Below, piece after piece: positions 28,988 through 32,781 of a stretch of 64,000 bases of DNA. A model generated the notes under the pieces. It made no database searches, was not told where the DNA came from, and was given only the letters and a program-made list of their open reading frames with translations. Source of the stretch: an uncultured Clostridia bacterium (GTDB lineage Bacteria > Bacillota > Clostridia > Christensenellales > Aristaeellaceae); assembly GCA_945948915.1 (NCBI GenBank), contig CAMFCQ010000002.1, positions 1 to 64,000 on the forward strand, read 5' to 3'. The position numbers were made by a program, and so were the translations under genes. Position 1 is the first letter of the stretch, and each line of letters opens with the position of its first letter.

Positions 28988-29662
28988 TTAGCGGGCGCTT
29001 CTTCTGCGCCTGCCATGCACGACCGCGCCCATCACGCCGGCCACCGATACGGCAAGCAGCACAAGCCATGCAGCCAGATTGCTGCTGTCGCCGGTCTTCG
29101 GGAGGTTGGTGACATCGCCGCCATTCTTGGTGTAGATGTTGATGAAGGTCATCTCATTCAGCGGATCCTTTTCATCGTTCACATAGTAGATCCTGCCGCC
29201 GTTTCCGTCCTCCTCATAGAGGGCCGGGTAGATGAGCAGCTCGCCCGCCATGGCACTGTCCATGGACATCTCAGCGACGCCGCCCCTCCAAATCAAGCCC
29301 CACACCGTATCGTCATAGTCCCAGCCGTCCTTGCCCTCGTCAATCTGCTGGACATATACGCCATCGGTGAGCCCAATTAATTCCTCGAGGGTGCCGGTAA
29401 AGGTCAGCATGCCGTCATAGTCGTCCTCGCCGTCGGTGGTGACGGTGCGGCCGGAGGGCGTCACGTCCTCAAAAGGTTCTCCATTGTCGTACATCAGCTC
29501 CAGCGTAAAGTCCGTCTTGCCAGGCTTTACGCTGCCGCCCTGCTCCACCGTGGTGGTGTAGGGCACGGTCAGGGTAATTTTGTCCTCCCCAAGGGCCGCA
29601 GCCGGGACGAGCATGAGCACCAGGCACAGGCTCAGCAGCATGCTGAAAATCCGTCTCTTCAT
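28988..29662 (-). CDS. LPXTG cell-wall protein with Spy0128/FctA-like pilin domain
   Basis: 224-residue surface protein. Signal peptide (MKRRIFSMLLSLCLVL), then one pilin-type domain (about 30-180) with FTLELMYDNGEPFED, GVYVQQIDEGKDGWDYDD (the Glu expected to support an isopeptide bond) and MTFINIYTKN at its end. The sorting signal is NLPKTG, then a hydrophobic helix and the basic tail GRRRRSAR. A sortase would cleave between Thr and Gly and attach it to peptidoglycan or a pilus. No sortase or second pilin is in the window. The start at 29662 has AAGGAGAG upstream. Own promoter about 190 bases upstream. Confidence 0.9.
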   Translation of the reverse strand: MKRRIFSMLLSLCLVLMLVPAAALGEDKITLTVPYTTTVEQGGSVKPGKTDFTLELMYDNGEPFEDVTPSGRTVTTDGEDDYDGMLTFTGTLEELIGLTDGVYVQQIDEGKDGWDYDDTVWGLIWRGGVAEMSMDSAMAGELLIYPALYEEDGNGGRIYYVNDEKDPLNEMTFINIYTKNGGDVTNLPKTGDSSNLAAWLVLLAVSVAGVMGAVVHGRRRRSAR

Positions 29663-29975: not shown

Positions 29976-30989
29976 TTAGGAAAACGCCTTGCCCTCAAAT
30001 GCCACGCGCCTGCGCACATCCTGCATCAGGCTGTCAAACTGCGCGGGATTGAGCGACTGCGCGCCGTCGCACAGCGCGTGCGGCGGATCGTTGTGCACCT
30101 CGATCATCAGGCCATCCGCGCCGGCGGCGATGGCCGTGCGCGCAAGCGGCTCCACCATCCAGGCGATGCCCGCCGCGTGCGAGGGATCGATGATCACCGG
30201 CAGATGCGATTTCTGCTTGATGATGGGCACGGCGGAGATATCCAGGTTGTTGCGGATCATCTTTTCAAACGTGCGGATGCCGCGCTCGCAGAGGATCACG
30301 TTGGGGTTGCCGCCGGCGAGGATGTACTCCGCGCTCATGAGCAGCTCCTCGATGGTGGAGGACAGGCCGCGCTTGAGCAGGATCGGCTTTTTGCTGCGGC
30401 CCAGCGCCTTGAGCAGCCGGAAGTTCTGCATGTTTCTCGCGCCGACCTGGATGATGTCCACGTCCGCAAAGTCGTCAAGCTGCGTCTCGCTCATGATCTC
30501 GGTGACAATCGGCAGTCCCGTGACGCGCCGGGCCTCGCGCAGCAGGTTCAGGCCCTCGTTTTCCAGCCCCTGGAACGAGTATGGCGACGTTCTGGGCTTG
30601 AACGCGCCGCCGCGCAGGCAGGTTGCGCCGCTCTTCTTGACGGCCTGCGCGACCTCTAGCAGCTGCGCCTCGCTCTCCACGGAGCACGGGCCGGCGATCA
30701 CCGTGAACGTCCCCTCGCCGATGGTCTTTCCGCCCGCGTCAATTCTGGAGTCCGCCGGGTGGAAGCGCCGGTTGGCCAGCTTGTAGGGCTCGGACACCCG
30801 CCGCACATCGGCCACCACGCCGCTGGCGCGCAGCCAGTCCTCGTCCACATGCGTCGTATCGCCGACAAGGCCTAGGATCGTCTCCTGCGTGCCCCTGCTG
30901 TAGTGAATCTCCACGCCCTGCGCGCGAATCTGCTCCATCAGCCTGCCAATGGCTTCCTGTGATGCTTCCGGTCTGAGAATGACGATCAT
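29976..30989 (-). CDS. aroF: 3-deoxy-7-phosphoheptulonate synthase (DAHP synthase)
   Basis: First step of the shikimate pathway: PEP plus erythrose-4-phosphate to DAHP. 337 residues of the I-beta type with an N-terminal regulatory ferredoxin-like domain (about 1-70, MIVILRPEASQEAIGRL) and a TIM barrel. Motifs: AGPCSVES, LRGGAFKPRTSPYSFQG, QVGARNMQNF, LLKRGLSSTIEE and IIDPSHAAG. Domain knowledge: the N-terminal domain mediates feedback by aromatic amino acids (Tyr or Phe). Expression is controlled by the attenuator upstream (leader peptide, mutually exclusive hairpins, terminator). The start at 30989 has TTGGAGGC upstream. No other aro gene is adjacent, so it is regulated as a single gene. Confidence 0.97.
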   Translation of the reverse strand: MIVILRPEASQEAIGRLMEQIRAQGVEIHYSRGTQETILGLVGDTTHVDEDWLRASGVVADVRRVSEPYKLANRRFHPADSRIDAGGKTIGEGTFTVIAGPCSVESEAQLLEVAQAVKKSGATCLRGGAFKPRTSPYSFQGLENEGLNLLREARRVTGLPIVTEIMSETQLDDFADVDIIQVGARNMQNFRLLKALGRSKKPILLKRGLSSTIEELLMSAEYILAGGNPNVILCERGIRTFEKMIRNNLDISAVPIIKQKSHLPVIIDPSHAAGIAWMVEPLARTAIAAGADGLMIEVHNDPPHALCDGAQSLNPAQFDSLMQDVRRRVAFEGKAFS

Positions 30990-31040
30990 ATCGGTGCCTC
31001 CAATTCAACTCTTTGTCAATATATTTGCAAATCTTTTCCA

Positions 31041-31076
31041 ACAAAAAACGGCCTGTCCATGCTCGGACGGGCCGTT
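31041..31076 (-). terminator. Attenuator terminator in the aroF leader
   Basis: Stem AACGGCCCGTCC/GGACAGGCCGTT on the minus strand followed by TTTTTT. Its 5' arm (31067-31076) can instead pair with leader RNA at 31110-31119, which would prevent termination. Confidence 0.88.
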
Positions 31077-31092
31077 GTGCTTCCTGCCTGAT

Positions 31093-31170
31093 TCATGCTC
31101 CGCAGCGCAAACAGCCCGTGAATCCAAACGGATACAGGCCGTAAGAGTACGCGGTCATGCTGCGGGCCAT
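31093..31170 (-). CDS. aroF leader peptide rich in Tyr and Phe
   Basis: 25-residue ORF starting MARSMT, with the core AYSYGLYPFGF and ending CLRCGA. The start follows AAGGGAGGAAACCACG, a strong binding site. Three Tyr (residues 8, 10, 13) and two Phe (15, 17) codons lie together. Region 1 of the RNA (ACGGCCTG, 31135-31142) can pair with region 2 (31110-31119), region 2 with region 3 (31067-31076), and region 3 with region 4 (terminator). This is the classical ribosome-mediated attenuation layout: stalling at Tyr codons frees region 2 to form the antiterminator. Confidence 0.82.
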   Translation of the reverse strand: MARSMTAYSYGLYPFGFTGCLRCGA

Positions 31171-31202
31171 CGTGGTTTCCTCCCTTGTCTGATGCTGTAC
31201 AT

Positions 31203-31231
31203 AGCATAACGCTGTTTTGACGTTTTGTCAA
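31203..31231 (-). promoter_or_regulatory. Promoter of the aroF leader
   Basis: TTGACA (31226-31231) and TATGCT (31203-31208), 17-bp spacer, about 35 bases before the leader peptide ATG. Confidence 0.85.
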
Positions 31232-31244
31232 CCATTATTTCAAG

Positions 31245-31270
31245 AAAAAAGCGTCTTCGTGTGAAGACGC
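31245..31270 (-). terminator. Terminator of the GT39-like operon
   Basis: Perfect stem GCGTCTTC/GAAGACGC with a GTGT loop, followed by TTTTTTC on the minus strand. It ends the operon whose last gene stops at 31288 and insulates the aroF promoter. Confidence 0.88.
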
Positions 31271-31287
31271 CATCTTTGCAGCCTTTT

Positions 31288-32781
31288 TCAGCGCAGCCGC
31301 TTTGTCTCCAGCAGCGCGCCCGCACACAGCAGCACCAGCTCAAACTGGAAGAAGTACCTTGCGCGCGTCTCCCAGATGCACAGCAGCAGGAACATGCCCA
31401 GCAGCGCGATGAACAGCGGCGCGCCGGAGGTGTCCCTCCTCAGGATCGCCTGCGCGCAGGAGAGCATCGCGATGGCCATCTGCGCCATGAACAGCGCCGT
31501 GCACAGGTGATAGTAAGCCGGATACAGTCTGCCCGTCGCAAAGACCGCCTGCTTGACCGCGTTGTCCGGCACATGATTGTTCGCCTGGAGGATCTCATTG
31601 AGGCGGAATGTGCCGTCGCCAAAGGTCGACAGGTTCTTGCGGGACATCATGTTCAGCAGCCGGTTCGGGTAGCGCAGGTAGTACACCCGGTCGATGATCT
31701 CCTCAAGCAGCGCCTCCCTGCGCTCCTCGGGATCCTCAAAGGACGTGGAGAAGATCAGCCATCCGCCGTCGCCGTACTGGCCGTATCCCTCCTCCTCGCG
31801 CACAGGCAGGCCCATGGCGATGTGATGCAGGCGCGGCAGCTCGTTGTTGTAGATATCCTCCTCGGACAGATGCTGCGCCGTATAGCCGTCCACCAGCGCG
31901 TTGCCGCCGAGGAACACCGTAAAGAGCATCACGCCCGCGCACAGCGCTGCCCTGCCCCGCCGCTCAAACACCAGCACGATCATGCAGGCAATCGCCGCGA
32001 TGACGGCGGTAAACTTGATCTGCGCCCCGGCAAAGGCGACCAGCGCAAACGCCAGCGCCCACAGCACGCGGCTGCGCAGCCGCGTGCTCCGCCTAAGACG
32101 GCAGAAACAATAGAGGGTCATCGTCGGAAAGGCCAGGGAAAACGCGTCGGTGTACAGTTCCGTCGAGCAGTACAGAAACGGCAGGCACGACGCGCACAGC
32201 ACCAGCATGCGCGTCTGCGCCTTCACGCCGCCCATGTCGCGGCACACGCGCGCGCCGGAGAGCAGGCCCAGCGTAAAGAGCACGCTGCACACCAGCGCCG
32301 CCTGCATAAACCGGTCAGCCCAGCCCAGCATACCGAAAAATCTGAAGATGCCCGCCAGCGCATACACAAAGCCCAGATTGAACGGATAGCGCGTGAAGTA
32401 CATCCACGACCGCTCGACGTTGCCGAACGTCCCCGTGTCCACGATCAGCTGCGCGGCGGTGAAGCACTGCTCCGCATCCGTGACGGGCACAAACCGCAGC
32501 ACATGCGCCATGACCATCTGCACGATGAAATAGCATCCTGCCGCGCCCAGCAGCACCTGCCGCTCGTGCCGCGCGAAGAACGCCTCGTGTCGGTCCGCCG
32601 CGCGCAGGGCCAGCCAAAGCAGCACGGTGCACGCCGCCGTCAGCAGCACAAGCACGCGGCGGGAGCGCTCATACAGCGGCCACGGCGAGAGCGTCACGTT
32701 GAGCACGGTGAACGCATAGCACGGGATCATCAGCCCCATGCCCACAAGCAGCAGCGCATGAAGCCATTTCTTCAGTTTCAT
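31288..32781 (-). CDS. Multi-pass membrane glycosyltransferase-like protein (GT39/PMT-like)
   Basis: 497 residues with about 11-12 hydrophobic helices. After the first helices the outer loop carries VPVTDAEQCFTAAQLIVDTG and MYFTRYPFNLGFVYALAG, placing an Asp and Arg as in GT-C fold lipid-linked sugar transferases; FCSTEL-like LYCSTELYTDAFSLAFP follows. Probably moves sugars from polyprenyl-phosphate donors to an extracytoplasmic acceptor. The substrate is unknown. The start at 32781 overlaps the stop of the preceding membrane protein (ATGA). Last gene of a minus-strand operon. Confidence 0.72.
   Translation of the reverse strand: MKLKKWLHALLLVGMGLMIPCYAFTVLNVTLSPWPLYERSRRVLVLLTAACTVLLWLALRAADRHEAFFARHERQVLLGAAGCYFIVQMVMAHVLRFVPVTDAEQCFTAAQLIVDTGTFGNVERSWMYFTRYPFNLGFVYALAGIFRFFGMLGWADRFMQAALVCSVLFTLGLLSGARVCRDMGGVKAQTRMLVLCASCLPFLYCSTELYTDAFSLAFPTMTLYCFCRLRRSTRLRSRVLWALAFALVAFAGAQIKFTAVIAAIACMIVLVFERRGRAALCAGVMLFTVFLGGNALVDGYTAQHLSEEDIYNNELPRLHHIAMGLPVREEEGYGQYGDGGWLIFSTSFEDPEERREALLEEIIDRVYYLRYPNRLLNMMSRKNLSTFGDGTFRLNEILQANNHVPDNAVKQAVFATGRLYPAYYHLCTALFMAQMAIAMLSCAQAILRRDTSGAPLFIALLGMFLLLCIWETRARYFFQFELVLLCAGALLETKRLR

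What the first reader, a model, noticed from the sequence alone, without database searches (positions are those of the whole stretch)
30990..31231. Classical Tyr/Phe ribosome-mediated attenuator in front of DAHP synthase
Seen directly: promoter TTGACA-17-TATGCT, a 25-codon leader ORF with a strong binding site and the run AYSYGLYPFGF, then a terminator with six T. Four RNA segments can pair in exclusive ways on the minus strand. Segment 1 (31135-31142) pairs with 2 (31110-31119, two wobbles), 2 with 3 (31067-31076, ten pairs with one wobble), and 3 with 4 (31047-31057, terminator). Stalling at the Tyr codons covers segment 1 and lets 2 pair with 3. Family knowledge: aromatic attenuation by leader peptide is classic in Proteobacteria (trp, phe); in Bacillota, control by T-box or TRAP is more usual, so a leader peptide for aroF is notable.
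Basis: partly seen in the sequence, partly recalled or inferred. Interest (0 to 1): 0.8.

Follow-up and report, generated by a model that had tools for sequence, protein, structure and literature searches.

The report
Tyrosine-sensing leader peptide before aroF
Upstream of the gene for the first enzyme of aromatic amino acid synthesis in an uncultured bacterium, likely a gut Clostridia species, lies a conserved 25-codon mini-gene followed by a predicted transcription terminator, and together they likely switch the enzyme gene on when tyrosine runs short.

Summary
In detail: on the minus strand there is a TTGACA-17-TATGCT promoter, a 25-codon leader ORF (31170-31093), four segments with alternative pairings and a strong terminator before a DAHP synthase gene. 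It is conserved: 16 of the 22 nearest aroF loci (75% identity or more) keep leader, stems and terminator, and stems 1:2 and 3:4 show compensatory changes (28 double-change cells against 10.5 in shuffles, 0/500). All 16 keep an in-frame Tyr codon 14-19 nt before segment 2, while 5 of 16 have no Phe codon, so the control residue is most likely Tyr. In two relatives the frame stops before segment 2 yet its bases are kept, so the RNA, not the peptide, is under selection. A second DAHP synthase in the genome heads an aroF-tyrA-aroB-aroA-aroC-pheA cluster and has a different, Phe-rich leader, conserved in 18 of 20 relatives fetched: the isozymes appear split between Tyr and Phe leaders. More widely, 55 of 117 DAHP synthase upstream regions carry an aromatic-rich short ORF (antisense strand 3). 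The mechanism is classical; the control residue, the lineage and the isozyme split appear new. No regulation has been measured, and the folding model supports only a kinetic switch.

The parts
31203..31231 (-). sigma-70-type promoter TTGACA-17-TATGCT
   Evidence: 10 of 12 matches
31217..31231 (-). palindrome TTGACAAAACGTCAA overlapping the -35 box; possible operator (inferred)
   Evidence: only exact TTGACANANNGTCAA in the 2.9-Mb assembly; TGAC-N5-GTCA 10 times in 16 Tyr-type upstream regions (8 of the 12 genus loci, 0 of 4 outside), shuffles 0.03
31179..31184 (-). ribosome-binding site GGGAGG of the leader ORF
31093..31170 (-). leader ORF MARSMTAYSYGLYPFGFTGCLRCGA (25 codons + stop)
   Evidence: corresponding ORF in 16 of 22 loci
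31132..31134 (-). Tyr13 codon TAT, the predicted control codon; 15 nt before segment 2
   Evidence: in-frame Tyr codon at this place in 16 of 16 leaders
31141..31149 (-). upstream Tyr codons Tyr8 (31149-31147) and Tyr10 (31143-31141)
31130..31141 (-). segment 1 (pairs with 2)
31110..31119 (-). segment 2 ACGGGCTGTT (pairs with 1 or 3)
   Evidence: near-invariant, also where it lies beyond a stop codon (L007, L009)
31067..31076 (-). segment 3 AACGGCCCGT (pairs with 2 or 4)
31043..31058 (-). segment 4 and T-run; with segment 3 the intrinsic terminator
   Evidence: -19.1 kcal/mol, z -4.6; 95.1% of cells paired
31005..31019 (-). degenerate second copy of the palindrome (2 mismatches), just before the aroF ribosome-binding site
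29976..30989 (-). aroF, DAHP synthase (337 aa), regulated gene; probably transcribed alone
   Evidence: terminator-like site 29940-29918 and promoter-like site 29886-29858 downstream

Best explanation
This is a conserved leader ORF with four RNA segments predicted to pair in alternative ways and a predicted terminator in front of aroF, and it most likely works as a classical ribosome-mediated transcription attenuator that senses charged tRNA-Tyr. Inferred steps: when Tyr-tRNA is scarce, the ribosome would stall at the conserved Tyr codon, cover segment 1 and leave segment 2 free. Segment 2 would then pair with segment 3 before segment 4 is made, no terminator forms, and aroF is transcribed. 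When Tyr-tRNA is plentiful the ribosome would run on to the stop codon, segment 2 is covered or melted, and 3:4 terminates transcription. Without translation 1:2 would form and 3:4 would again terminate. Shown: the parts, their conservation and their compensatory changes. Not shown: transcription, stalling and dependence on tyrosine.
For: All 16 Tyr-type leaders have SD, ORF, segments and terminator. Stems 1:2 + 3:4: 89.5% of cells paired, 28 double-change cells against 10.5 shuffled, covariation score 0 of 500 shuffles as high, slid versions 41-49% paired. The variable part of 1:2 (4 pairs): 47 of 64 paired against 39.2 shuffled, p 0.0007. Antiterminator 2:3: 92.4% of cells paired, slid versions 37-59%. 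At columns 105, 106 and 108 segment 3 varies only between A and G, each opposite a U of segment 2, so the terminator changes there in ways that keep 2:3 (my reading). Conserved Tyr codon 14-19 nt before segment 2 in 16 of 16; with an assumed leading edge of +16 it leaves segment 2 free by 1-6 nt. Modelled 2:3 probability before segment 4 is made: 0.94 with the ribosome at this Tyr, 0.00 at the stop codon, 0.23 with no ribosome (means of 16). In L007 and L009 the ORF ends one base before segment 2 and in L013 segment 2 is read in another frame, yet its bases are largely kept. A covariance model built from the 16 (which match by construction) gave no other match better than E 4e-6 in 29 genus and 396 order genomes.
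Against: Six of 22 loci have no such leader (L014-L017, L023, L132), nor have the loci at 71-73% identity (L035-L038). One measure is not above shuffles (pair types, 175/500), and related sequences can exceed shuffles. Covariation of 2:3 is not significant (108 of 500 shuffles as high), since segment 2 hardly varies. At equilibrium the terminator still has 0.66 with the ribosome at the conserved Tyr, so the switch must be kinetic; for the window's own RNA without a ribosome neither 2:3 (0.10) nor 3:4 (0.21) dominates. Folding 31131-31041 alone gives 2:3 as best structure but 3:4 as centroid. Averaged over all codons of the 16 leaders, stalls at Phe give 2:3 at 0.74 and at Tyr 0.87: upstream Phe codons, present in 9 of 16 (not in the window), would also free segment 2. 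The +16 footprint is recalled. No expression data.
Confidence: 0.82

Rival explanations
1. The leader senses phenylalanine and tyrosine jointly (a general aromatic signal).
For: The window leader has Phe15 and Phe17; the modelled 2:3 probability with a stall at Phe15 is still 0.67. Nine of 16 relatives have Phe codons upstream of the control Tyr, where stalls free segment 2 (means over all codons: Phe 0.74, Tyr 0.87). Leaders in other Clostridia mix Tyr and Phe about equally (221 Y, 234 F, 9 W).
Against: 5 of 16 leaders have no Phe codon at all and 7 of 16 none after the conserved Tyr, whereas Tyr is at the control place in 16 of 16. In the window no Phe precedes the control Tyr, and Phe17 would bury segment 2 (0.11).
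Confidence: 0.25
2. The ORF encodes a functional small protein (Cys-containing TGCLRCAA tail), and the hairpin is simply its terminator.
For: A tail like TGCLRCxA is kept in most of the 16.
Against: In L007 and L009 the ORF stops before that stretch, in L013 the frame differs at it and in L006 and L011 just after segment 2, yet the bases of segment 2 stay; compensatory changes in the stems; no promoter-like site was listed between terminator and aroF.
Confidence: 0.04
3. A T-box, a TRAP-like protein or another riboswitch controls the terminator, and the ORF is chance.
For: Tyrosine genes of other Firmicutes use T-boxes (PMC2494555, passages; PMC1262725, passages).
Against: No Rfam family reaches its gathering score in the window, and none scores near it in 30900-31400; by my reading the leader RNA has three scattered GAG and no UAG, no TRAP-like array; the ORF is conserved.
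Confidence: 0.02
4. The main control is a repressor at the -35 palindrome, and the attenuator is a minor layer.
For: TTGACAAANNGTCAA overlaps -35 and recurs, degenerate, before the aroF RBS; TGAC-N5-GTCA 10 times in 16 Tyr-type and 5 times in 20 Phe-type upstream regions, shuffles 0.03 and 0.06. In the 12 leader-bearing genus genomes 13 of 24 exact TGACAAANNGTCA sites lie within 320 nt upstream of a DAHP synthase start (counted by me with the gene positions).
Against: No exact TGAC-N5-GTCA in 4 of 12 genus loci (L006, L008, L009, L011) nor in the four outside the genus (L018, L133-L135); other sites of the motif lie before unrelated genes; no regulator identified.
Confidence: 0.2

Closest known systems
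trp / his / pheA leader attenuators of Proteobacteria (recalled; classical)
   Same: Leader ORF with control codons, segments 1-4, terminator 3:4, antiterminator 2:3, control codon shortly before segment 2.
   Different: Control residue most likely Tyr; host is a clostridial bacterium; DAHP synthase rather than trp/his/pheA operon.
uORFC-13-1 motif before aroF in Acholeplasma (PMC8632094, passages read)
   Same: uORF and terminator before aroF, aromatic codons, predicted attenuation; the same passage says attenuation of aroF had been hypothesized in E. coli.
   Different: 24 sequences from Acholeplasma and environmental DNA; its noted codon is Phe; its consensus was not available for comparison.
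His leader peptides of Bacillus hisS/hisZ and of Firmicutes his operons (PMC2965389, PMC9413887, passages)
   Same: Ordinary leader-peptide attenuation in Firmicutes in place of a T-box.
   Different: Histidine codons, other genes.
Tyr T-box of tyrosine genes in the Bacillus cereus group (PMC2494555, passages)
   Same: RNA-level control of tyrosine synthesis in Firmicutes.
   Different: A T-box binds tRNA directly (recalled); no T-box match here.

Membership tests
Classical ribosome-mediated transcription attenuator | Translated leader ORF with ribosome-binding site | tested here: met
   ORF and SD present, kept in 16 of 22 loci; translation itself not measured
Classical ribosome-mediated transcription attenuator | Control codons for the end product of the regulated pathway | tested here: met
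   In-frame Tyr codon at the same place in 16 of 16; 2 or more Tyr codons in each; gene is DAHP synthase
Classical ribosome-mediated transcription attenuator | Intrinsic terminator 3:4 before the gene | tested here: met
   z -4.6; covaries in 16 sequences
Classical ribosome-mediated transcription attenuator | Protector stem 1:2 exclusive with antiterminator 2:3 | tested here: met
   1:2 covaries; 2:3 is 92.4% paired but its covariation could not be shown
Classical ribosome-mediated transcription attenuator | Stall at control codon frees segment 2 | tested here: inconclusive
   Geometry and folding model fit with an assumed footprint; equilibrium still favours 3:4 (0.66)
Classical ribosome-mediated transcription attenuator | Read-through depends on charged tRNA-Tyr | not testable with these tools
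   needs expression data
T-box riboswitch | T-box sequence and specifier structure (Rfam model) | tested here: not met
   no match at gathering score in the window, nor any T-box listed at E up to 5 in 30900-31400
uORFC-13-1 (Acholeplasma aroF) | Published consensus | not testable with these tools
   consensus is in a figure, not held

The most novel reading that the evidence does not exclude
Leader-peptide attenuation, not the T-box, is a common way in which gut Clostridia control entry into aromatic amino acid synthesis. In this genus two DAHP synthase isozymes carry two different leaders, one reading tyrosine and one reading phenylalanine, so the end-product specificity that Escherichia coli gives to its isozymes through TyrR and allostery (recalled) is written here in two mini-genes, with a shared operator as a possible second layer.
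Probability: 0.48. Interest if true: 0.68.

Novelty: new member of a known kind. Interest (0 to 1): 0.52.

Why it matters
Ten full-text searches of the held library listed no paper that I could see to describe a tyrosine-reading leader peptide or an aroF leader in Clostridia; subscription papers are mostly not held. One passage lists phenylalanine under attenuators and tyrosine under T-boxes (PMC1262725). A Tyr leader before one DAHP synthase and a Phe leader before the other would show isozyme-specific end-product control by translation alone. It would also mean that textbook attenuation is common in Clostridia, where T-box control is the usual expectation, and it offers an annotation rule for short ORFs before aroF in gut genomes.

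Tried and rejected
T-box or other riboswitch: no Rfam match at gathering score in the window, only noise at E 0.24-3.7 in 30900-31400. Forty loci set aside as lacking a clear leader (one of them, L040, does pass the ORF criteria): 0 T-boxes., 14 more sources: one TPP riboswitch on the minus strand of L018, no T-box.

A shuffle test for antiterminator pairing in 59 leaders (the 55 plus L005, L012, L013, L135) was weak: 56 of 59 have a terminator by that finder (not L040, L047, L048), but only 9 of 56 have a 2:3 duplex at z below -1.64 (mean z -0.61). The antiterminator is therefore claimed only for the 16 relatives.

Tree of 117 DAHP synthases with leader labels: 29 changes against a mean of 38.4 in 300 shuffled labelings, the lowest of which also reached 29. 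The 65 labels were adjusted by hand (L002, L005, L009, L010, L012, L013, L030, L099, L135, L138, L141 counted as having a leader, L040 not), so this is only weak support for inheritance.

Weak covariance-model hits (E 4e-6 to 1e-3): 24 loci fetched, none holds a DAHP synthase; 8 weak hits were not fetched. Taken as chance. A regulator for the palindrome was sought only through the genes next to other copies, without result.

After the recount I lowered confidence in the Tyr reading from 0.88 to 0.82 and raised the joint Tyr/Phe rival from 0.20 to 0.25, because upstream Phe codons in 9 of 16 relatives score well; the section on the most novel reading went from 0.50 to 0.48 for the same reason.

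Full report
What is there. On the minus strand the window carries, in order: a promoter (31231-31203), a ribosome-binding site, a 25-codon ORF (31170-31093), a terminator (31076-31043) and aroF (30989-29976). The gene product is a DAHP synthase. The gene probably stands alone: a terminator-like and a promoter-like site follow it, and the next ORF downstream has no family match. The assembly has 2.90 Mb in 158 contigs. Four same-genus genomes have contigs of the same lengths as records titled Clostridia bacterium (two, from roe deer), Clostridiales bacterium and Christensenella sp. UBA4263, so the host is an uncultured Clostridia bacterium, probably of animal guts (inferred).

Conservation. Of the 22 loci found with at least 75% identity to this DAHP synthase (17 in the genus, one of them partial, and 5 in the samples outside it), 16 have the leader (L001, L003-L013, L018, L133-L135) and 6 do not (L014-L017, L023, L132). 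Loci at 71-73% (L035-L038) lack it too. The 16 leaders share a Tyr codon in C[T/C]GTAT, a near-invariant segment 2, and a terminator whose 5' arm is complementary to segment 2. Stems 1:2 and 3:4 are supported by compensatory changes (8 pairs with double changes, 28 cells against 10.5 shuffled; the number of pair types is not above shuffles, 175/500; p 0.0007 for the variable part of 1:2). The 2:3 stem is paired in 92.4% of cells, but segment 2 is too constant for covariation to show (108 of 500 shuffles as high). A covariance model was built from the 16. In 29 genus genomes and 396 genomes drawn from the order, the matches at E 5e-15 or better are these 16 themselves, as expected by construction; the next best is 4e-6 (one search used stricter filters). 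None of the 24 weak loci fetched holds a DAHP synthase.

RNA rather than peptide. In L007 and L009 the ORF ends one base before segment 2; in L013 segment 2 is read in another frame; in all three its bases are largely kept.

Which amino acid. All 16 leaders have a Tyr codon whose first base lies 14-19 nt before segment 2. If the leading edge of a ribosome is 16 nt from the first base of the P-site codon (recalled), a stall there leaves segment 2 free by 1-6 nt, exactly 2 in 10 of 16. Five of 16 leaders (L005, L009, L012, L134, L135) have no Phe. Folding with masked 5' parts gives, before segment 4 exists, a mean 2:3 probability of 0.94 for a stall at this Tyr, 0.00 at the stop codon and 0.23 without a ribosome; with segment 4 present the terminator has 0.66, 0.98 and 0.87. 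So the switch is plausible only as a kinetic one. Against a strict Tyr reading: over all codons, Phe stalls average 0.74 and Tyr stalls 0.87, since Phe codons upstream of the control Tyr (9 of 16 leaders, not the window's) also leave segment 2 free. The window's RNA without a ribosome gives no clear winner (0.10 and 0.21). Folding 31131-31041 alone gives the 2:3 antiterminator as the best structure (-34.1 kcal/mol) but the terminator as centroid; the whole leader shows 1:2 and 3:4 in the best structure.

The second DAHP synthase. The genome's other copy (60% identity, contig 33) heads a cluster with TyrA, AroB, AroA, AroC and a chorismate mutase-prephenate dehydratase. Its leader is MFSFSFARFSGYCFSGNSLAFVRA, followed by a terminator. 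Of 20 upstream regions fetched from relatives, 18 have a corresponding leader in full (L112-L129), one is partly in view (L130) and one, from another genus, has a different aromatic leader (L131). All 19 (with L002) hold the Phe of [A/V]RF and also Tyr codons. I infer that this leader reads Phe; its pairings were only inspected, not tested. So one genus appears to have a Tyr leader on the stand-alone isozyme and a Phe leader on the operon isozyme.

Wider distribution. In 117 distinct upstream regions of DAHP synthases (duplicates L032-L034 and L076, L002 and L137 left out; 76 come from the capped list of the 80 nearest records, so the sample leans to close relatives), 55 have a short ORF with a ribosome-binding site, at least 5 aromatic residues and at least 20% aromatic; the antisense strand gives 3 and 20 shuffled sets 2.8 on average, 8 at most. 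The residues are 221 Tyr, 234 Phe and 9 Trp. The criteria miss six of the 16 (L005, L009, L010, L012, L013, L135) and admit L040, which I distrust. With hand-adjusted labels and NCBI ranks the leaders occur among others in Oscillospiraceae (10 of 21), Lachnospiraceae (2 of 3) and unranked Clostridia (19 of 28), not in Christensenellaceae (0 of 2) or Butyricicoccaceae (0 of 3). Antiterminators were not shown for this wider set.

Possible second layer. A palindrome TTGACAAANNGTCAA overlaps the -35 box and a degenerate copy precedes the aroF ribosome-binding site. The first is the only exact TTGACANANNGTCAA in the assembly. In relatives exact TGACAAANNGTCA sites recur before both DAHP synthases but also before unrelated genes. 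A repressor is possible, not shown.

Literature. Ten full-text searches listed no report that I could see of an aroF leader peptide in Clostridia or of Tyr control codons. Passages read: uORFC-13-1 before aroF in Acholeplasma and an older hypothesis for E. coli aroF (PMC8632094), His leaders in Firmicutes (PMC2965389; PMC9413887), Actinobacteria attenuators (PMC1262725), T-boxes (PMC2494555). This is no proof of absence.

Verdict. The finding is a new member of a known kind, with a likely new control residue and an unexpected isozyme split.

Noticed in passing
G000 contig 33 (L203 1849-8609; L002): Second DAHP synthase heading an aroF-tyrA-aroB-aroA-aroC-pheA cluster, with a Phe-rich leader MFSFSFARFSGYCFSGNSLAFVRA and terminator; corresponding leader in 18 of 20 relatives fetched.
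   Followed up: partly
31217-31231 and 31005-31019 (minus strand): Palindrome TTGACAAAACGTCAA over the -35 box and a degenerate copy before the aroF ribosome-binding site; enriched before DAHP synthases in the genus.
   Followed up: partly
L045, L047, L048, L052, L053, L055, L056, L061, L082, L083: Aromatic leaders before DAHP synthase in other Clostridia often hold a Cys-Cys motif near the end (FCC, LCC, VCC), perhaps a trace of a common segment 2.
   Followed up: no
L014-L017, L023: A subgroup of the genus has this aroF without aromatic leader and without exact TGAC-N5-GTCA, with a different 5' region.
   Followed up: partly
L112-L129: In the Phe-type leaders a possible outer stem (GCRCGA with UYGUGC) encloses the inner hairpin; seen by eye in several sequences only.
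   Followed up: no
28988-29662 (minus strand): ORF of 224 aa with signal-like start and LPKTG-like stretch, no Pfam or NCBIfam match; perhaps cell-wall anchored (inferred from sequence).
   Followed up: no
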